Below are positions 1,414 to 13,046 of a stretch of 13,137 nt of DNA, one piece after another. Numbering within the stretch: position 1 is the first letter of the stretch; the number at the start of each line of letters is the position of its first letter. The position numbers and the translations under genes are program-made. Origin of the DNA: Oscillospiraceae bacterium. Its GTDB lineage: Bacteria; Bacillota_A; Clostridia; Oscillospirales; Oscillospiraceae. Where the stretch lies: positions 1-13,137 of the forward strand of contig JAFQDR010000058.1 of assembly GCA_017415945.1 (NCBI GenBank), written 5' to 3'. The notes under the pieces were generated by a model. The model saw only the letters and a list, made by a program, of their open reading frames with translations, was not told the origin of the DNA and searched no databases.

Positions 1414-1449
1414 AAAGAAAAGGGCGTGCTGCAAATTTGCAACACGCCC
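1414..1449 (-). terminator. Intrinsic terminator ending the surface-protein transcript
   Basis: A 28-bp near-perfect palindrome (1422-1449; arms of 14 with one mismatch, centre GCAAATTTGC) is followed on the minus strand by the T-rich tract TTTTCTTT (1414-1421). This is the first good minus-strand terminator after the stop codon at 1732, so the large surface-protein mRNA probably carries a 3' untranslated region of about 300 nt that includes the folding element at 1451-1683. Confidence 0.6.
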
Positions 1450-1450
1450 A

Positions 1451-1683
1451 ATGATATATTTCCTTACGGAAATATGATGTATACTTTGTAAATGATGTAT
1501 TGCTTGCGCAATATGATGTTTGCTACGCAAATTGTGGTATCCCTACGGGATGATTCAAATTGAACCCCCAAATTCACGCAGTGAATTTGGGGGTTACCAC
1601 AATTGTTTTCGAAGAAAACACATCATTGGCGGAGCCAACATCATTCCGCCTTAGCGGAACATAATTGATTTGCCGTGCAAATC
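1451..1683. repeat. Multi-hairpin folding element 1 (ATGATGT/ACATCAT ladder)
   Basis: A dense series of short perfect hairpins with 3-4 nt loops: 1456-1475 (8 bp), 1499-1512 (5 bp), 1519-1531 (5 bp), 1539-1551 (5 bp), 1563-1595 (15 bp, loop GCA), 1605-1619 (6 bp), 1626-1638 (5 bp), 1644-1659 (6 bp) and 1667-1683 (7 bp). On the left side they are separated by ATGATGT (1474-1480, 1492-1498, 1513-1519). On the right side they are separated by ACATCAT (1620-1626, 1638-1644) and a degenerate ACATAAT (1659-1665). A 10-bp stem (1530-1539 with 1595-1604) encloses the central two hairpins. Left and right spacers are complementary and properly nested, so the whole stretch can fold into a ladder of four-way junctions. 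It lies in the 3' untranslated region of the surface-protein gene. Function unknown. Confidence 0.85.
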
Positions 1684-1690
1684 TACCTCA

Positions 1691-1720
1691 TGGAGCTGTT
1701 GTAATTCTGCAACAGCTCCA
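1691..1720. other. Strong hairpin just after the surface-protein stop codon
   Basis: An 11-bp perfect inverted repeat (1691-1701 with 1710-1720, arm TGGAGCTGTTG) with an 8-nt loop. On the minus strand, the strand of the gene ending at 1732, it is followed by ATGAGGTAG and not by a T tract, so it is a poor intrinsic terminator in that direction. On the plus strand it is followed by AGCTTTTGTTG, a weak tract. It could be a 3'-end stabilising structure or a weak plus-strand terminator. Confidence 0.6.
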
Positions 1721-1731
1721 GCTTTTGTTGA

Positions 1732-4700
1732 TTATCCTATTGCTTTGTACAGGAAGGTAGCGATCTGTGCACGAGTGCAGGTCTGGTCGGGACCAAACAT
1801 ACCGGGTGCAACACCGCCTGTCACTTCGTTCTGCTTTGCCCACAGCACGGGCATCAGATACCATGCAGTGCCGGGAACATCCTCAAACTCATTGACGATT
1901 GCCTGTACGGGAGGCTTGCCCTGTGCGGCGTACAGGAAGGTGACCACCTGTGCACGGGTGCAGGGATTGTCGGGAGAGAAGGTGTTGGCAGATGTACCGC
2001 CGGTCACACCGTTCTCAACTGCCCACATAACTGCCTTGAAGTACCAGTCGGCTTCGCTGACATCGGTGAAGGGATTGTCAGCATCCTTGGGCTCGGGCTT
2101 GCCGTTTGCTGCCCACAGGAAGGTGACCACCTGGGCACGAGTACAGGAATTGTTGGGGGAGAAGGTGGTAGCGGAGGTACCGCCGGTTACGTTGTTCTGT
2201 ACCGCCCACATGACGGGAGCATAGAACCAGTCACCGGACACAACGTCGGTAAAGGGATTTTTGAATTCCTCTGCGGGAGGAGTGGGCGTGGGCTTCGCCG
2301 TGGGAGTGGGTGTAGGCTTCGCCGTGGGAGTGGGCGTAGGCTTCGCCGTGGGAGTGGGCGTGGGCTTCACCGTGGGAGTGGGCGTGGGTTTCGCCGTGGG
2401 AGTGGGCGTGGGCTTCGCCGTGGGAGTGGGCGTGGGCTTCGCCGTGGGAGTGGGCGTAGGCTTCGCCGTGGGAGTGGGCGTAGGCTTCGCCGTGGGAGTG
2501 GGCGTAGGCTTCACCGTGGGAGTGGGTGTAGGTGCCACGTAGTCGGGATCACGATAACCGCAAACCGTGCACTTGCCATCGGTGAACTTGTGCTCGGTTC
2601 TGGGAATGCTTTCCTGCTTCTTCAGCACTTCGCCGCAGACAGAGCACTTGGTGCCGTCGGTCTTGCCCTCAGCGGTGCAGGATGCATCAAAACCGGGGAT
2701 GGTCTGTTCCTTATGTCCCGTTGCGGGAACAATTTCCTGCTTCTCGGTTACTGCATTGCAGCGTTCGCAGTGCTTGCCTGCGGTCAAGCCGGTTTCGGTG
2801 CAGTTGGGAGAAACAGCCTTGTCGGTCACTTCCTTGTGCCCCAGTTCCTTGATTTCGCGGGTCTCCGCTTCGGGGCAGAGTTCGCAGGTACGGGTTTCAG
2901 TGCCCTTTTCGGTACAGGTAGCCTCGGTGGTCACGACCCATTCACCGAACTTGTGGTCGTGGGTGGCTTCGAGCTTAGTGACCTTGAAGCCCCAGGCGGT
3001 GCCTGCATCGTCGGTGCTGAGCTTAATGATCATGGTGTCGCCGTCAATGATGATGGTCTGACCTGCAAGGGCTGTGCCGGTGTACTTGCCCACTTCCTTG
3101 CCTGCTGCGTTGTAGATGTACAGGTAGTCAAAGCCGTCTTCCATTTCGGTCTTCTCGTCAAAGGTGACAGACAGCTTTTCGGAATCGGGAATGGAATATT
3201 TCCAGCTGTCGGTGCAGTTCAGAGGATAATCGTGGGGGCTTTCCATGCCGTCCACGGTTTCGGGGGTGTATTGGGTGTTCTTGACGGTAACCGCACAGGT
3301 GTTGGAAATACCGCCGTCAACCAGCGTGACGGTGATCTCTGCGGTGCCTGCGGTGAGAGCGGTGACCAGACCGGTTTCATCGACGGATGCCACAGCCTCA
3401 TCGGAGGATTTCCAGACAACCTCCTTGTTAATGGCGTTGTCGGGCTGTACGGTGGCCTTCAGCTGATAGGTGCTGCCGCCGTCCAGACTGAGCTTGGTCT
3501 GGTTCAGGCGAATGTTGTTTGCAGGCTGAATGACCGTCAGCTTGATGCTTTCGGTGAGGCGGCCAACAGTGACGCGGACAGTGGCTTCGCCCACACCAAC
3601 CGCCTTCACATTGCCTCTGTCGTCTACCTTGATGACCTTTTCATCGGAGCTCTTCCAGCTGATGGCATCGGTGAAGTCCGCGGGGGTAACGGTCAGCTTC
3701 AAAGTCTGGCTTGCGGAATTGTTCATGGTGGTGTTCTCTGCTTCCAGCTTTACAGCGGTGGCGGGAACATCGTTGGCTACGAACTTGTAGCCGTTATCGC
3801 TTGCCCATGTTTCCGCATAGGTGCCGGGAACACCGTGAACGACCATGCGGTCGGGATAGGAAAATGCCAGATTGCCGATCTCTGTCACACCGCGGGGCAT
3901 GACTGCCTTCAGCAGCTTGGGACAGGAGTTGAAGGCACTCGCTTCGACCTTAGTCACATAGTAGGGAATGGTGATCTCTTCCAGCTCCACACATTCGTAG
4001 AATGCCTTGGAGGGAATGGTGCTGAGGTTGCGGCTGAGCTTCACATTCTTCAGCTTGTCGCAGTGGTAGAATGCTTCAGCACCGAGCGCGGTGACTGCAT
4101 CCGCCATGGTCACATCGGTCAATACGTCGCAGTCGTAGAAGCATCTGGTGCCGATGCTTTGCACGGCATTACCCAGTGTTACGGTGGTCAGTGCATCACA
4201 GTCGTAGAATACATCTCCGCCCAGCTTTGTTACCTTGTTGGGGATGGTGACTGTCTTCAATACATCACAGTTTTTGAATGCATACGTGCCGATAGTTACC
4301 AGAGCTTCGTTCAGCTGAATGGATTCCAGACCTGCGCACTCATAGAATGCACTGTTTTCCAGCTTGGTGACCGATGCGGGGAGCTTGAAATTAACCAGTG
4401 CGTCACAATTGCTGAATGCGGAGTCGCCGATGACTTCCAAACCTTCGGGCAGACCGGGGTCAATCAAGGCGGTGCAGCCTTGGAAAGTATATTTGGGCAG
4501 AGCCTTCCAATGGTCGGGCCACTTTGCCTTGGTCAGAGAAGTGCAGCCTTGGAACACGTGTTCACCCATCTCGGTGATCTTTTCGTGAATAACGATTTCC
4601 TTCAGAGCGGTACAGTGATAGAACGCATAGGAACCTACGGAAGTGACAGATTCGGGAATGGTAATGGTTTCAATACCTTCGCAGCCTCTGAGCAAACGAG

Positions 4701-7440
4701 GAGGCACAGAGGTAATGCCGTCTTCCAGTGTAACCTTTTTCAGATTGGGGCACAGATTGAAAATACCGTTATAGATGTCGGAGTCTCCTAAGCCGGAAGG
4801 ACCGGCAACACAGGTTTCCAGAGATTTGGGAATAAAGATTTCGGGCAGAGCGGAGCAGTTTCTGAATACTCTGATACCCATTTCCTCCAGATTGTTGGAC
4901 AGCCCTACGGAAGTCAGAGCAGTGCAGTTTTCAAAAGCACTGGAGTTCACTTTGGTAACGCTGTCGGGGAGCTCAATTTTGGTCAGTGCGGAGCAACCAT
5001 TAAAAGCAGAACTGTCGATTGAGGTAATATTCTTGGAGAAGCTGACCTCTTTCAGATTTTCACAGTGGTAGAATGCATATTCGCCGATAAAAGTAACGGT
5101 ATCGGGAATGGTAATGGTTTCAATGCCTTCGCAGCCTCTGAGCAAACGAGGAGGCACAGAGGTAATGCCGTCTTCCAGTGTAACCTTTTTCAGATTAGGG
5201 CACAGATTGAAAATACCGTTATAGATGTCGGAGTCTCCTAAGCCGGAAGGACCGGCAACACAGGTTTCCAGAGATTTGGGAATAAAGATTTCGGGCAGAG
5301 CGGAGCAGTTTCTGAATACTCTGATACCCATTTCCTTCAGATTGTTGGACAGTCTTACCGATTTTAGTGAGGTGCAGTTCTCAAAAGCGCTTGCGTCTAC
5401 CTTAGTAACACTGTCGGGAATATCCACACGCACCAGAGCGCTGCAGCCGTAGAAGGCAGAGGATCTGATAGTGGTCAGCTTTTCGGGGAAGGTCACGGAA
5501 ATCAGATTGGTGCAGCCGTTGAATGCATTTTGACCGATGTCGGTGACATTGGCGGGAATGGATACGCTGCGCAGAGCGGTTTGCTCCTTAAACGCATCAT
5601 TGCCGATGGCCACAACGGTGTGGCCGTCGATGGTGTTGGGAATCGCAAGTGCGCTGACACCGCCGCTGTAGGAGGTAATGGTTGCATTGCCGTCATCATC
5701 CAGAGAGTATTTGTAGGAGGGGGGCTTCACCATAGCGGAAGACCCACCGTTGCGGTAGCGAGAGGTGGAGGATGTGGTGTAGTAGTGATGATAGCCGTTA
5801 AATTCGGAATCACCATAGGTGCAGCTGCTTACAAACTCACCATCCTCATTGTGGGAAATGGAGCGGCAGGGAGAGTTGTTTCTGTCCCAAATGGTATATG
5901 TATAGGGGAATTCCTGATATAGCTTTTCCGCACCGGGAATCTTAGACTTAATGCCTACGGACATGAAGAAATTCACATGGGCATACAGCCAGCTGTCGGT
6001 ATGGAAGCAGCGCTGAGGGGTCTTGTCATTGCCGCGGAAAACAACCTGCATATAAGATTTAAAGCCAACCTTGGCCTCTACGCGCCCTGACATAAAGGGC
6101 ATCTTCTCCAGATAGAAGCCCGCGGTAACGCCCATATCCAGTGTTGCTTCAATGGTCAGAGAGAAATGGGTCTTCTTAAAGCTGTGCACTGCGCGGAAGC
6201 CACCGTAATAGTCATACTCCACGCCCACATCAAACTTGGCGCGGTAGTCCAGCGTGATGGTGCCGTCCAGAGAGATATCAGCCTCGATTTTCACATCGCC
6301 GATGCCTGCAACGGGGTAGTAGCCCAGCAGAATGCTCTTGTCCATCTTGGACAGAGAGGTGCCGAAGCTGACGGAGGGGTTCATGTGTAGGTTACCACTG
6401 AGGACAGCGGAGCAGTCAATGGAGCGCTTGTCAAACACATTGCCGTTGGCGTGCCACTTGAGCTTCATGTTTTCCAAGGTGAATACAACGTTCACGCTGC
6501 CGAACTTCTGATTGAAGTAAATGGATTTGATTTTCTGTGTACCTGCAAGTCTGGCATCACGAACCTCGGTGCCGTCCTCCAGCACGTAAATGGGCTCAAT
6601 GCCCTCTGCGGGACGGAACGCAGCCAGGTCGCCTTCGGAAACGCCCTGTGCGTCAACGCTGACCAGATACTCATTTTCATCCAGTACGGTGCCCTTTACG
6701 GTGTAAACGGTACCATTAACGGTAACGGAATCGGCTTGATACAGATAAGGCAGACCTTGGAAGTACACAACAAACAGTGTTCCCTGTTCAATGGGCTTAT
6801 CGGTACCGATGACAGAAATACTGCCGTCATCGTTCTTCTGCGCTGCGGCATTTTCCAGATTCAAAACCTCATCCGCAAAAACATACTTGTTTTCATAGAA
6901 TGCATCATAGGTCTGACCGAAGTACACTTCCTTTGCGTCCTTCAGCATGGCATCCATTTCGGCCTTGGTAATGAGCTGATCGGGCTTGAACGCACCGTCA
7001 ACCAATGCAAACCAGCCGCGGTTGACCGCAACCTGCGCATCCATGGGGGATGCCACATCAGCACTGTCGGAGAAGGTGTATTCGGTGCTCTCCAATTGGA
7101 AGCCCAGACAATAGTTCAGCGTTTGGGCCGCAAACGCACGGGTCACCGCACCCTCGGGGTTAAAGGGCAGACCCGCTTCAATGTCGATAACACCGAATTC
7201 CGTAGCAACCAGAATATCGCGATAGTATTCCTCTTCGCCTGTCAGGTCGCTGAAATAGTTGTCGGGATAGTTGTCCTCTTCGACGGTCATCTCAAAGGTG
7301 CTGACCAGCTGTTGGACCCACGCACTGCGGGTCACCTCGCCCGTTTCGTCCGCAGCCCTTGCGCTCATAGGCAGTGCGGCGGGCAGAAGGGTCGCTGTCA
7401 GAGCGATCAGCAGGACAAAAAGAATCATCCGTTTCTTCAT
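1732..7440 (-). CDS. Giant secreted SLH-anchored protein with BspA-type LRRs, Ig-like, CUB-like and CxxC repeats
   Basis: 1902 residues, start [20 protein letters not shown] with a signal peptide ending near ARA-AD (residue 29-30). Order of parts: two degenerate SLH-like segments (about 37-180); a beta-rich region of unknown family (about 180-575); BspA-type leucine-rich repeats of roughly 23 residues with the SAFxxCxxLxxVxIPxxVxxIG pattern (about 575-1225); two Big_2 Ig-like domains (about 1226-1305 and 1306-1388, each with SWKSSDEKV or VWKSSDEAV); a CUB-like domain (about 1389-1493, [21 protein letters not shown]); four CxxC knuckle repeats (about 1494-1630); a Pro-Thr linker (about 1636-1725); and three SLH domains, each with a CTRAQ motif, to the C-terminus. 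SLH domains bind pyruvylated secondary wall polymers, so the protein should sit on the cell surface; LRR and Ig-like parts suggest adhesion or binding, ligand unknown. A GAGGT ribosome binding site (7448-7452) lies 7 nt before the ATG, and a strong promoter precedes it. Monocistronic. Confidence 0.93.
2279..2537 (-). repeat. 24-bp minisatellite encoding the Pro-Thr linker
   Basis: Ten tandem 24-nt units, each coding PTPTPTAK or PTPTPTVK, followed by a partial unit (PTPTPPAEE). The unit length is a multiple of three, so copy-number change keeps the frame. Units differ only at a few third positions and at the Ala/Val codon. The linker sits between the CxxC repeats and the three C-terminal SLH domains and would act as an extended spacer through the cell wall. 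Confidence 0.95.
4652..4902 (-). repeat. Intragenic LRR duplication, copy 1
   Basis: This 251-nt block matches 5102-5352 at a constant offset of 450 nt (150 codons) with only three differences that I can find (4675, 4747 and 4887). Both code the same run, from [20 protein letters not shown] through to [14 protein letters not shown]. The flanking repeat units are much more diverged, so this block was duplicated or gene-converted recently. Confidence 0.92.
5102..5352 (-). repeat. Intragenic LRR duplication, copy 2
   Basis: Partner of the block at 4652-4902; see there for the comparison. The block carries the atypical insert [18 protein letters not shown], which interrupts the regular LRR rhythm identically in both copies. 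Confidence 0.92.
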
Positions 7441-8013: not shown

Positions 8014-8753
8014 TGAACGCGTATATGGGGCTGGCCCGTTTTTACGATGACCTGACCGGGGACGTTCCATACGAAAGCTTTGCCGACTACTATGAAAATA
8101 AGTTCCGTGAGCGGGGCAAGTCCGTGCAAACGCTGCTGGACTTCGCCTGCGGGACGGGGACGCTGACCTGCATCATGGCCCAAAGAGGCTATGAGATGAT
8201 CGCGGCGGATCCCTCTCCCGATATGCTCATGGAGCTGATGGATAAGGCATACACCATGGAGGACATAGAGCCTCCATTGGTTTTGTGTCAGGATGCGGTG
8301 TCACTGGACTTGAACGACGTGGTGGATGCCTGTTACAGCTCTCTGGACGGCATCAACTATATCCACCCCGAGGATCTGACGGAGCTGTTTCGTCTGCTGC
8401 ATCTGTTCGTTGCCCCCCATGGGCTGCTGGTGTTCGACGTGAACAGTCCCGAACGCTTCCGCAGTCTGGACGGGCAGGTGTTCGTGGACGAGACCGACGA
8501 GGTGCTGTGCCTGTGGCGTGCGGACTTCGACGAGGAGGAAAACGCACTGATCTACGGTATGGATCTGTTCACCCGCACAGAGGATGACCTCTGGGAGCGT
8601 GAGGTGGAGGAGCATATCGAGTATGCACACAACCTTGATTGGCTGGTGCATGAACTGACCAAGGCGGGCTTTGTCAACATCGAGGTGGACGAGCACGGCC
8701 CCCAGAGCGAGCACGGCAGAGTGTTCATCACTGCGGAAAATACGCCGCACTAA
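8010..8753 (+). CDS. Class I SAM-dependent methyltransferase
   Basis: 247 residues. Motif I of the Rossmann-like fold is clear: LLDFACGTGTLT (about residues 42-53), followed by the acidic residue that binds the SAM ribose (IAADPS, Asp67), then LVLCQDAVSLDL and a post-motif region CYSSLDGINYI and LLVFDVNSPERF. The C-terminal half (ENALIYGMDLFTR, VEEHIEYAHNLDWLVHELTKAGF) resembles small-molecule methyltransferases of the methyltransf_11/25 type; substrate unknown. The ATG at 8010 overlaps the yerC-like stop; ATG at 8013 is an equally possible start, and a GGACGAAGG-like ribosome binding site lies just upstream. It sits between a regulator and hslO, and no terminator with a T tract separates it from hslO, so read-through into hslO is likely. 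Confidence 0.88.
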   Translation: MMNAYMGLARFYDDLTGDVPYESFADYYENKFRERGKSVQTLLDFACGTGTLTCIMAQRGYEMIAADPSPDMLMELMDKAYTMEDIEPPLVLCQDAVSLDLNDVVDACYSSLDGINYIHPEDLTELFRLLHLFVAPHGLLVFDVNSPERFRSLDGQVFVDETDEVLCLWRADFDEEENALIYGMDLFTRTEDDLWEREVEEHIEYAHNLDWLVHELTKAGFVNIEVDEHGPQSEHGRVFITAENTPH

Positions 8754-8757
8754 ATAT

Positions 8758-8905
8758 GCCTCCCCTTCGATAAGGGGAGGTGGCATTTTCGAGGAACGAG
8801 AAAATGACGGAGAGGTCGAAGAAATAAGCAGCAATCCAGGTTGCCAAAACCTCTCAGTCAGCCGCTCGTACCTCGCGTCTGACAGCTCCCCTTAAAAGGG
8901 GAGCC
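8758..8905. repeat. 148-bp dispersed foldable repeat, copy A
   Basis: Starts GCCTCCCC and ends GGGGAGCC. It has a 9-bp hairpin at each end (8759-8780 and 8885-8904), an inner hairpin with CATTTTC/GAAAATG arms, and a longer stem (TGACGGAGAGGT with ACCTCTCAGTCA) around a variable centre. A second copy of exactly the same length is at 11245-11392. It fills the methyltransferase-hslO gap; neither end hairpin is followed by a T tract on the plus strand, so it should not block transcription into hslO. It codes for no recognisable protein and is best described as a MITE-like or REP-like element. Confidence 0.9.
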
Positions 8906-8932
8906 TCATAAAGTATAAGGAGATATTATAAT

Positions 8933-10158: not shown

Positions 10159-10233
10159 GGCGCCATAGCCAAGTGGTAAGGCAGTGGACTGCAAATCCGC
10201 GATTCCCCGGTTCAAATCCGGGTGGCGCCTCCA
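10159..10233 (+). tRNA. tRNA-Cys (anticodon GCA)
   Basis: 75 nt with encoded CCA. Acceptor GGCGCCA pairs with TGGCGCC, anticodon loop CTGCAAA with GCA at 10191-10193, T-arm GGTTCAAATCC. Last gene of the operon, directly followed by a terminator. Confidence 0.97.
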
Positions 10234-10234
10234 G

Positions 10235-10269
10235 AAAAAACCTCCGATGCTTTGCATCGGAGGTTTTTT
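10235..10269 (+). terminator. Bidirectional intrinsic terminator of the tRNA operon
   Basis: A6 then CCTCCGATGC, loop TTT, GCATCGGAGG, then T6: a perfect 16-bp inverted repeat starting one base after the tRNA-Cys CCA end. The flanking A6 and T6 make it work in both directions. Confidence 0.95.
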
Positions 10270-10270
10270 A

Positions 10271-10410
10271 ATGATGTCCGTTTCGCTTCGCTCACGGATG
10301 ATGTTGCTGCTGCAATGATGTCTGCTTCGCAGATGATGTGCGCTTACGCGCATGAACGAAACGGACATTGCATCATATCGGAGATACATCATGTGCGAAG
10401 CACACATCAT
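10271..10410. repeat. Multi-hairpin folding element 2 (ATGATGT/ACATCAT ladder)
   Basis: Left-side spacers ATGATGT at 10271-10277, 10298-10304, 10315-10321 and 10333-10339; right-side spacers ACATCAT at 10386-10392 and 10404-10410, plus an interrupted ACAT-TG-CATCAT at 10364-10375. Between them sit short hairpins: 10304-10315, 10321-10333, 10339-10352, 10376-10386 and 10392-10404, with 3-4 nt loops. A 10-bp stem (10276-10285 with 10357-10366) encloses the left hairpins. An alternative 5-bp hairpin (10277-10298) competes with that stem. The hairpin sequences differ from those of element 1; only spacers and design are shared. It follows the tRNA operon terminator. Confidence 0.85.
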
Positions 10411-11224: not shown

Positions 11225-11238
11225 ATATCTGATTTAAT

Positions 11239-11266
11239 AAAAAAGCCTCCCCGACCATAAGGGGAG
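11239..11266 (-). terminator. Terminator for the symporter gene, formed by the edge of repeat copy B
   Basis: On the minus strand CCTCCCC, an 8-nt loop and GGGGAGG are followed by C and T6 (A6 at 11239-11244 on the plus strand). The hairpin is the outer hairpin of the 148-bp repeat; the T tract lies in flanking DNA. It is the best terminator after the symporter stop at 11401, so the symporter mRNA would carry the repeat as its 3' end. Confidence 0.75.
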
Positions 11267-11392
11267 GTGGCATTTTCGAGGTACGAGAAAATGACGGAGA
11301 GGTCGATAAAATGGGGAATCGTATAACCGATTTTAACCTCTCAGTCAGTCGCGCGTTCCTTGCTCCTGACAGCTCCCCTTAAAAGGGGAGCC
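11245..11392. repeat. 148-bp dispersed foldable repeat, copy B
   Basis: Same length as the copy at 8758-8905. The first 62 nt differ at about four or five positions, all in or near loops; the last 58 nt are also closely similar, with differences limited to the GTCAG/CTGAC hairpin interior. About 28 central nt are unrelated. Stem positions are conserved while loops vary, as expected for an element selected for its fold. It lies between the symporter stop and the XRE-type promoter region. Confidence 0.9.
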
Positions 11393-11400
11393 ATATATTG

Positions 11401-12771: not shown

Positions 12772-13046
12772 TTAGCCTGACAAATTTAATCCGTACTCGT
12801 TTCTGAGTGTGTAGGCTAAGCCATTGCGGCGTACTCGTCTTTTGAAAGGCGACAGCCTTTCTGCAAGACGACGCCTTGCCCTGACTCAGCCTACGCACTC
12901 AGAAATCTTCGACACCACAGGCGTAGATTTTTGTGTCAGACGAAATTTTATGATGCCGACGGGCTGGCGCCCTTCAAAAAATAAAATGATGTATGGCGCA
13001 AAAAGATGCCCTGTGGTGCGGGTTCGGATTATATTTGTCAGGCTAA
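12772..13046. mobile_element. 275-bp MITE-like element with 22-bp terminal inverted repeats
   Basis: Terminal inverted repeats 12772-12793 and 13025-13046 begin TTAGCCTGACAAA and match at 21 of 22 positions. The trinucleotide ACG flanks both ends (12769-12771 and 13047-13049), a possible target duplication. Inside are nested inverted repeats: 12800-12817 with 12888-12905 (one mismatch in 18), a hairpin 12836-12870, and 12913-12921 with 13010-13018. No open frame in it resembles a transposase, so it would depend on an enzyme encoded elsewhere. It begins 33 bp upstream of the symporter start. Confidence 0.85.

What the first reader, a model, noticed from the sequence alone, without database searches (positions are those of the whole stretch)
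1451..1683. A 230-bp ladder of four-way junctions encoded by opposed ATGATGT and ACATCAT spacers
The element has about nine short hairpins. Every spacer on the left reads ATGATGT and every spacer on the right reads ACATCAT (one is degenerate), in properly nested order around a 10-bp central stem (1530-1539 with 1595-1604). Each spacer pair can form a 7-bp rung, with one hairpin sticking out on each side of each junction, so the strand can fold as a repeated four-way junction. Two of the central hairpins sit inside the inner stem, one of them with 15 bp. I do not recognise this as a named element. As RNA it would be in the 3' end of the giant surface-protein mRNA; as DNA it could extrude as a branched cruciform. 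The pairing is seen in the sequence; any role is inference.
Basis: partly seen in the sequence, partly recalled or inferred. Interest (0 to 1): 0.85.

Follow-up and report, generated by a model that had tools for sequence, protein, structure and literature searches.

The report
Hairpin ladders of a mobile element
A stretch of DNA that can fold into a ladder of hairpins appears to belong to a scattered, probably mobile gene unit of gut bacteria linked to a small protein gene of unknown function, and it contains an RNA family catalogued in 2010 without a function.

Summary
The pairing is real (0 of 200 shuffles fold as well on either strand), with corrections: one left and two right spacers are degenerate, and the full ladder is not the lowest-energy fold of this copy. 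It is a diverged relative of a large family. Canonical copies (one at window 10271-10410) have about four spacers ATGATGT, about four opposed ACATCAT, a cap hairpin and a long-range A:P stem; the consensus fold of 35 copies is a four-rung ladder. In other families both halves change together (GTGAAAT/ATTTCAC, TGATAT/ATATCA and more). Rfam's Gut-1 RNA is one half of such ladders. Ladders sit co-directionally behind tRNA genes (24 of 64) and other T-tracts; in many loci a PF05635/TIGR02436 four-helix-bundle gene starts about 50 nt downstream, and spacer family follows the protein tree. Best reading: cis-acting folded module of a PF05635-linked mobile gene unit; the window holds two copies without the protein gene. 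How it moves is unknown; Y1 transposases and reverse transcriptases do not track it. Folding in the cell and protein binding are inferred.

The parts
1451..1691 (.). Element 1 (the finding): diverged ladder without a protein gene; four outer rungs, central stem, hairpins; no A:P stem (longest complement 7 or 5 nt), so orientation unknown
1449..1524 (+). Sub-threshold match to Rfam RF01706 Gut-1 (43.1 bits; gathering 50), three hairpins of the left half
1451..1457 (+). left spacer 1, ATGATAT (degenerate)
1474..1480 (+). left spacer 2, ATGATGT
1492..1498 (+). left spacer 3, ATGATGT
1513..1519 (+). left spacer 4, ATGATGT
1530..1539 (+). 5' side of the central stem (pairs with 1595-1604; its first base is shared with the neighbouring hairpin)
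1539..1551 (+). inner hairpin 1
1563..1595 (+). inner hairpin 2, 15 bp
1595..1604 (+). 3' side of the central stem
1620..1626 (+). right spacer 4', ACATCAT
1638..1644 (+). right spacer 3', ACATCAT
1659..1665 (+). right spacer 2', ACATAAT (degenerate)
1685..1691 (+). right spacer 1', ACCTCAT (degenerate, 5 of 7 pairs)
10271..10410 (+). Element 2: canonical ladder without a protein gene, forward orientation (4 left + 3 right exact spacers)
10274..10285 (+). A segment (end of spacer 1 plus 5' arm of hairpin 1), 12 nt complementary to P
10357..10368 (+). P segment behind the cap hairpin
10241..10269 (+). terminator-like hairpin with T-tract behind tRNA-Cys, ending directly before element 2 (by eye)
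   Evidence: same spacing in relatives
10159..10233 (+). tRNA-Cys gene, co-directional, directly upstream of element 2

Best explanation
The ladder is the cis-acting, strand-specific folding module of a small mobile gene unit of gut bacteria built around PF05635/TIGR02436 four-helix-bundle proteins (the family of 23S-rRNA intervening-sequence proteins, related to Avd of diversity-generating retroelements). Anatomy (seen in sequences): terminator-like hairpin with T-tract - ladder - in part of the copies a promoter and RBS - then either a four-helix-bundle gene, sometimes overlapping the next gene by ATGA, or another gene; directly behind tRNA genes and other T-tracts, in the same direction. 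Left and right heptamers are complementary and can fold, with hairpins between them, into a four-rung ladder; one hairpin arm (A) has a second possible partner (P), so the module may switch shape (complementarity shown, switching inferred). Working model (inferred): the folded single strand, more likely RNA from read-through of the upstream gene than single-stranded DNA, is bound through its heptamers by the four-helix-bundle protein, and this complex is what is copied or inserted behind terminators. The two window ladders are copies without the protein gene; element 1 is a diverged relic. The enzyme that cuts or copies is unknown.
For: Architecture: 125 ladders (at least 3+3 opposed 6-mers) in 877 kb of fetched loci, 0 in one shuffled copy of each locus; of 109 distinct elements 65 have equal left and right numbers, 38 differ by one; consensus fold of 35 copies has four nested rungs. 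Spacer families: 75 of 90 adjacent array pairs are reverse complements, shuffled mean 36.9, max 47. A:P complement of 8 nt or more in 91 of 109 elements in the better orientation against 4 of 109 in the worse. Protein link: in 21 of 32 tblastn hits the match starts 20-60 nt after a ladder in the same direction; 85 of 100 Gut-1-positive genomes have TIGR02436 against 24 of 145 negative ones, odds ratio 28.6; spacer family changes 8 times on the protein tree, the minimum for nine families, shuffled mean 14.5, min 12. Mobility: 24 of 64 behind a tRNA, 24 of 24 co-directional; behind one homologous tRNA-Tyr stretch three related genomes carry three different ladder types, by eye; ladder behind Mrp in 1 of 27 genomes of one genus; tRNA-Ala site without ladder in two relatives; an Endomicrobium MAG has a protein 70% identical to Clostridia ones and an ATGATGT ladder.
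Against: No experiment; mostly MAGs. The nested ladder is not the MFE of element 1, the automatic test misses it and it has no A:P stem; rung 4 is weak even in canonical copies (0.36). Position 7 of rungs 2 and 3 does not covary (7 and 16 of 36 mismatched), so the matched halves could also be two inverted protein-binding arrays. In hairpins A.C mismatches are not rare (43 against 75 G.U of 1214 cells). Taken by best score in genomes of one order, only 5 of 27 TIGR02436 genes have a ladder upstream by the automatic test (1 downstream); most others have plain heptamer repeats. 15 of 100 Gut-1-positive genomes lack TIGR02436 and 24 of 109 TIGR02436 genomes lack Gut-1. A promoter-like TTGA-TATAAT directly behind the ladder is found in only 19 of 87 elements. 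The window has no PF05635 gene. Genomes are related, so association tests are not independent. No recombinase identified; the boundaries of the unit are unresolved.
Confidence: 0.65

Rival explanations
1. Stand-alone structured noncoding RNA gene or regulatory RNA (Gut-1 as published), repeated in the genome but not part of a PF05635 unit.
For: Gut-1 was judged certainly RNA and not cis-regulatory (PMC2864571, passages); the forward strand folds better than the reverse in 66 of 95 elements; compensatory changes in hairpins.
Against: The element starts right behind a T-tract (T5 within 14 nt upstream in 64 of 92), though no promoter scan was run upstream. Many dispersed copies per genome, variable loci, and linkage to TIGR02436.
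Confidence: 0.13
2. Host-beneficial transcription barrier or insulator between a terminator and the next gene, kept by selection and spread by ordinary recombination.
For: Recurrent place behind a T-tract of a co-directional gene, mostly between genes in the regions mapped (by eye).
Against: Presence/absence within a genus (1 of 27 behind Mrp), different ladder types at one tRNA-Tyr site, co-segregation with a protein gene.
Confidence: 0.1
3. REP/BIME-like palindromic repeats moved by a Y1 (RAYT/IS200-type) transposase.
For: Hairpin units with a short conserved word, opposed arrangement, strand-specific folding.
Against: Y1_Tnp genes do not track Gut-1 in 245 genomes (both 32, Y1 only 32, Gut-1 only 68, neither 113; odds ratio 1.66, p 0.10), whereas TIGR02436 does (28.6).
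Confidence: 0.05
4. Retro-element mobilised in trans by a reverse transcriptase (DGR or group II type), with the Avd-like protein as accessory.
For: PF05635 proteins are related to DGR Avd (PMC10053308 passage); insertion behind terminators resembles group IIC introns (recalled).
Against: RVT_1 genes are not enriched with Gut-1 (both 20, RT only 46, Gut-1 only 80, neither 99; odds ratio 0.54, p 0.056).
Confidence: 0.05

Closest known systems
Gut-1 RNA (Rfam RF01706; PMC2864571)
   Same: Three hairpins separated by a constant spacer (GUGAAAU in the consensus); both halves of ladders match it: 20 convergent and 0 divergent pairs among 83 matches.
   Different: Gut-1 describes one half, as a free noncoding RNA listed as human gut only; here it is half of an opposed ladder, found in 100 of 245 genomes of one order at E 1e-5, with a linked gene.
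23S rRNA intervening sequence (IVS) with S23p/IVP (PF05635), e.g. PMC4990558
   Same: Same protein family (96.7 bits, cut-off 33.8); selfish-element reading; tandem heptamers before the ORF are reported in the Coxiella IVS (passages).
   Different: Contexts found here are tRNA and protein genes; the ladder lies upstream of the gene; variable genes follow.
DGR accessory protein Avd
   Same: Homology of PF05635 to Avd is noted in print (passage).
   Different: Reverse transcriptases are not associated; template/variable repeats were not searched for.
REP/BIME elements with RAYT (recalled)
   Same: Inverted hairpin units with a short conserved word, many copies.
   Different: Y1 transposase not associated; fixed order with a P stem; heptamers change in families.
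Integron cassettes with attC sites (recalled)
   Same: Strand-specific folding site next to small variable genes.
   Different: The module precedes the gene instead of following it; an integrase was not searched for.

Membership tests
Gut-1 RNA RF01706 | score above the family's gathering cut-off | tested here: not met
   window 43.1 of 50 bits; in five host genomes 29 of 83 matches are over the cut-off
Gut-1 RNA RF01706 | three hairpins with a constant spacer | tested here: met
   alignment
Gut-1 RNA RF01706 | independent noncoding transcript | not testable with these tools
   no RNA-seq
23S rRNA IVS | PF05635 ORF in the element | tested here: not met
   no tblastn hit in the window; present next to many relatives
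23S rRNA IVS | located inside a 23S rRNA gene | tested here: not met
   no rRNA match in the window up to E 1; relatives were not scanned for rRNA
23S rRNA IVS | excised by RNase III | not testable with these tools
   experiment needed
REP/BIME with RAYT | partner Y1 transposase | tested here: not met
   odds ratio 1.66, p 0.10 in 245 genomes; a single-genome test was not possible for the window
DGR | reverse transcriptase linked | tested here: not met
   odds ratio 0.54 in 245 genomes
MITE | terminal inverted repeats and target-site duplication | tested here: inconclusive
   short inverted heptamer ends; duplications not testable, no empty site with an alignable right flank
Ladder family defined here | opposed heptamer arrays with hairpins between | tested here: met
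   element 2 by the automatic test; element 1 by inspection only, the automatic test misses it
Ladder family defined here | A:P long-range stem | tested here: not met
   element 1: longest complement 7 or 5 nt, within background; element 2 has it, 12 nt

The most novel reading that the evidence does not exclude
A new kind of mobile gene unit: PF05635 proteins are partners of heptamer arrays, either plain tandem heptamers or hairpin-interleaved ladders. Each protein clade recognises its own heptamer in a folded single strand and inserts units, some carrying a promoter and RBS and exchangeable genes coupled by ATGA, behind tRNA terminators, without any known transposase, integrase or reverse transcriptase. 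23S rRNA intervening sequences would be one branch of this superfamily.
Probability: 0.38. Interest if true: 0.95.

Novelty: categorically new. Interest (0 to 1): 0.85.

Why it matters
It gives Gut-1 RNA an anatomy and a likely partner, gives the widespread PF05635/TIGR02436 family, whose function is called unknown in the 2016 paper read in passages, a testable nucleic-acid substrate, and suggests a mobile-gene platform behind tRNA genes in gut Clostridia for which no transposase was recognised. The spacer families are ready-made specificity controls for a binding test.

Tried and rejected
Rfam matches PK-repBA, Plastid-ycf2 and Ms_IGR-8 in the window are sub-threshold and were taken as chance. 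The first loose viral pattern gave unrelated repeats where looked at (L044); loci L001-L120 were not used in counts. A strict hairpin criterion found only 15 array pairs (12 matched) and was relaxed to the 90; with no hairpin criterion it is 82 of 134 matched (shuffled mean 37.5, max 50; outside the ATGATGT family 12 of 39, shuffled mean 4.7, max 10). Orientation by a copy of hairpin 1 alone left 37 of 109 undecided and was replaced by the A:P complement (12 undecided). Of 97 oriented elements one (a re-reading of a neighbouring ladder, L200) was dropped before, 27 were too close to a contig edge and 5 had no neighbour, leaving 64.

The TTTGTCTACC terminator as part of the unit: 8 of 10 occurrences are followed by a ladder by eye, suggestive but not decisive. 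A search for the window's right-hand neighbour found nothing in 396 genomes, so there is no empty site for the window itself. A covariance model of the ladder, AlphaFold, a promoter scan and a search for integrases were not run.

Literature (open-access PMC text only): 'Gut-1 RNA' phrase 0 papers (one search listed only Faecalibacterium papers); combinations of TIGR02436, IVS, S23, four-helix bundle, heptamer and tRNA listed no title or abstract describing such ladders; the heptamer note in the Coxiella IVS paper is the only related statement I saw. PMC2864571, PMC4990558 and PMC10053308 were seen as passages only, the rest as listings.

Full report
1. The observation. The spacers and hairpins described at 1451-1683 are present. 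One of four left spacers (ATGATAT) and two of four right spacers (ACATAAT, ACCTCAT) are degenerate, and the last right spacer ends at 1691. Both strands fold far better than dinucleotide shuffles (z -6.9 and -7.5, 0 of 200). With RNA parameters the complete nested ladder lies 15.7 kcal/mol above the MFE (-74.0 against -89.7), and three of four outer rungs have pair probabilities below 0.02. So the complementarity is real and the ladder is one possible fold of this copy, not its predicted best.

2. A second copy. The opposed array at 10271-10410 begins at the T-tract behind tRNA-Cys. It has the canonical anatomy described below, with a 12-nt A:P complement; its MFE (-55.1) is likewise lower than the ladder (-34.0) or A:P form (-32.8) written by hand.

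3. Relatives. In 153 loci (877 kb) 125 opposed arrays of at least 3+3 copies of any 6-mer were found, 0 in one dinucleotide-shuffled copy of each locus. Most loci were chosen through one half (ATGATGT), so the frequency is biased; the second half and the other spacer families were not selected for. There are 109 distinct elements: 65 with equal numbers left and right, 38 differing by one, 6 by more. Element 1 of the window is not among them, because only two of its right spacers are exact.

4. Canonical structure. Forward: s1 - h1 - s2 - h2 - s3 - h3 - s4 - cap hairpin - P - s5 - h5 - s6 - h6 - s7 - h7 - s8. P can pair with s1 plus the 5' arm of h1; this A:P complement is 8 nt or more in 91 of 109 elements in the better orientation, against 4 of 109 in the worse one (taking the better of two favours it somewhat), with 47 different P words in 97 oriented elements. 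The RNAalifold consensus of 35 aligned ATGATG elements has four nested rungs and hairpins h1, h2, h3 and h5 (energy -27.65, covariation term -2.18); nine pairs, all in hairpins, show changes on both sides. Rung cores are invariant there because the elements were selected for them. Folded singly, 39 four-plus-four elements of several families give mean rung probabilities 0.93, 0.76, 0.61 and 0.36; 25 of 39 have at least three rungs above 0.5, 13 all four.

5. Spacers across families. Without presupposing complementarity, 90 adjacent hairpin-array pairs were collected; in 75 the second word is the reverse complement of the first at 5 of 6 letters or more (shuffled mean 36.9, max 47 of 1000), in 2 it is the same word; outside the ATGATGT family 15 of 20 (shuffled mean 9.8, max 14). 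By eye most of the 15 unmatched pairs are the same families in another register or belong to two neighbouring elements. Families include TGATGT/ACATCA, GTGAAAT/ATTTCAC, TGATAT/ATATCA, ATGAAGC/GCTTCAT, TCGATA/TATCGA and a swapped ACATCAT/ATGATGT form. Against strict rung pairing: position 7 of rung 2 is mismatched in 7 of 36 and of rung 3 in 16 of 36 elements. Matched halves are shown; rung formation in the cell is not.

6. One strand folds. In 36 four-plus-four elements the right-hand hairpins h5 and h6 carry many GA and AG mismatches (52 and 43 cells), and s5 and s8 often make G.U pairs with the left side; on the other strand these would be CT/TC and A.C mismatches. Overall the hairpins show 75 G.U and 43 A.C among 1214 cells, the A.C mainly in h2, h3 and h7, where my symmetric pairing does not fit bulged hairpins well. 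The forward strand is predicted more stable than the reverse in 66 of 95 elements (RNA) and 63 of 95 (DNA parameters); the elements are related, so the p-values are nominal.

7. Gut-1. Window 1449-1524 is a sub-threshold Gut-1 match. In six host records RF01706 gave 83 matches in five of them, 29 over the cut-off; 40 lie in convergent +/- pairs within 60 nt (20 pairs), none in divergent pairs, and there is one same-strand pair. The 2010 paper lists Gut-1 as certainly RNA, not cis-regulatory, human gut only (PMC2864571, passages). Of 245 genomes drawn from one order, 100 have Gut-1 at E 1e-5 and 86 over the cut-off, with filters that lose weak matches.

8. Place. Of 64 oriented elements with enough flank, 24 follow a tRNA gene, all 24 co-directional, 22 of them at 33-49 nt; 28 follow a co-directional ORF and 12 an opposed one, by a simple ORF finder. 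A T5 tract lies within 14 nt upstream in 64 of 92 elements, an A5 tract within 14 nt downstream in 10. TTGACA lies within 12 nt of the right end in 18 of 87, and a TTGA-TATAAT pair in 19 of 87. Among 27 tRNA-Cys genes in 30 loci of one family (25 with at least 150 nt behind them) one, L339, besides the window has a ladder behind the terminator. In one genus a ladder stands behind Mrp in 1 of 27 genomes. With the tRNA-Ala locus of G005 as query (tRNA 587-662, ladder to about 887, next start codon at 940), three relatives match only to 662-672; two of them show no ladder in 200 nt, the third is cut at 50 nt by the contig end. Of the listed dispersed matches, 14 end at 888-889, just behind the last spacer, and 10 at 933-935, five to seven nt before the start codon: so some copies share ladder only and others ladder, promoter and RBS. 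Behind a homologous stretch ending in tRNA-Tyr, three related genomes carry an ATGATGT ladder, a GATATACA-type ladder and a 27-nt remnant of a GTGAAA-type unit, by eye.

9. Partner protein. The gene downstream is PF05635 23S_rRNA_IVP / TIGR02436 (one solved relative, 2rld). In 21 of 32 tblastn hits the match starts 20-60 nt after a ladder in the same direction (two of them, L188 and L209, partial), one more with unknown orientation. Independent direction: of 30 such genes from ten genomes, most of them chosen as ladder hosts, 25 were parsed (three without upstream sequence); 13 have a ladder upstream and 4 downstream at the lenient setting, 11 and 1 at the strict one. Of 27 best-scoring genes in genomes of one order it is 5 upstream and 1 downstream. 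Those without ladders mostly carry plain 7-nt tandem repeats: among 73 genes, lag-7 repeats occur upstream in 20 and downstream in 15 of 70, while lags 3-6 and 8-12 give 0; 35 are ladder, 19 heptamer, 19 neither at that threshold. Where heptamers stand on both sides, 8 of 14 are reverse complements and 4 of 14 the same word (shuffled mean for the former 2.1, max 7). Ladder or heptamer type follows the protein tree (11 changes, shuffled mean 30.9, min 23), and so does spacer family (8 changes, the minimum for nine families among 35; shuffled min 12; six of the nine families are single genes, and the grouping of close words is mine). Co-occurrence with Gut-1 in 245 genomes: 85 both, 24 protein only, 15 Gut-1 only, 121 neither (odds ratio 28.6); reverse transcriptases (0.54) and Y1 transposases (1.66) do not track it. 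In the Endomicrobium MAG the protein (L285) is 70% identical to Clostridia ones; MAG contamination is not excluded.

10. Following genes. In 14 of 49 such genes with enough downstream sequence (56 distinct, 7 at an edge) the stop codon overlaps the start of a following ORF as ATGA; the 14 ORFs differ. Among those scanned are a NUDIX (L156), a nucleotidyltransferase (L305) and a DUF5381-like protein (L172); a glyoxalase and a second NUDIX lie 26-27 nt behind others; two of seven had no match over a cut-off.

11. Mechanism. Shown: anatomy, matched spacer families, strand asymmetry in sequence, site preference, protein linkage and co-segregation. Inferred: that the protein binds the heptamers, that the ladder or the A:P form is the active shape, that the moving form is a folded strand, and that the window's ladders arrived as copies without the gene. 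The host of the window is an uncultured Oscillospiraceae relative by one protein (85% to a named MAG protein). Element 1 is placed in the family by its spacers, hairpins and Gut-1 match only; it lacks the A:P stem and a T-tract on its left, so it is a diverged member at best.

Noticed in passing
window 8751-8910 and 11238-11397: Two copies (87-89% identical in the parts compared) of a ~160-bp palindromic repeat in direct orientation, probably an unrelated miniature repeat.
   Followed up: no
window 12772-12905 and 13019-13046: Further imperfect inverted repeats (24- and 28-nt arms) upstream of the symporter gene.
   Followed up: no
window 1732-7440 (-): 1902-aa surface protein with BspA-type LRRs, Big_2, CUB, a [13 protein letters not shown] repeat linker and SLH domains; a 300-nt direct repeat 450 nt apart.
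   Followed up: partly
L426 and L428, behind tRNA-Ala: A second copy of the tRNA-Ala 3' end lies further downstream of the terminator, followed in L426 by another terminator-like hairpin: perhaps another small element at the same place.
   Followed up: no
L226, L303, L311: Ladders of two different families stand before and behind one four-helix-bundle gene or its neighbour.
   Followed up: partly
upstream regions of L355-L382: Plain 7-nt tandem repeats flank PF05635 genes that lack hairpin ladders; period 7 and no other tested period.
   Followed up: yes
L275 (F. prausnitzii CNCM I 4541 genome): The four-helix-bundle gene's upstream region holds a degenerate ATGATGT array (by eye).
   Followed up: no
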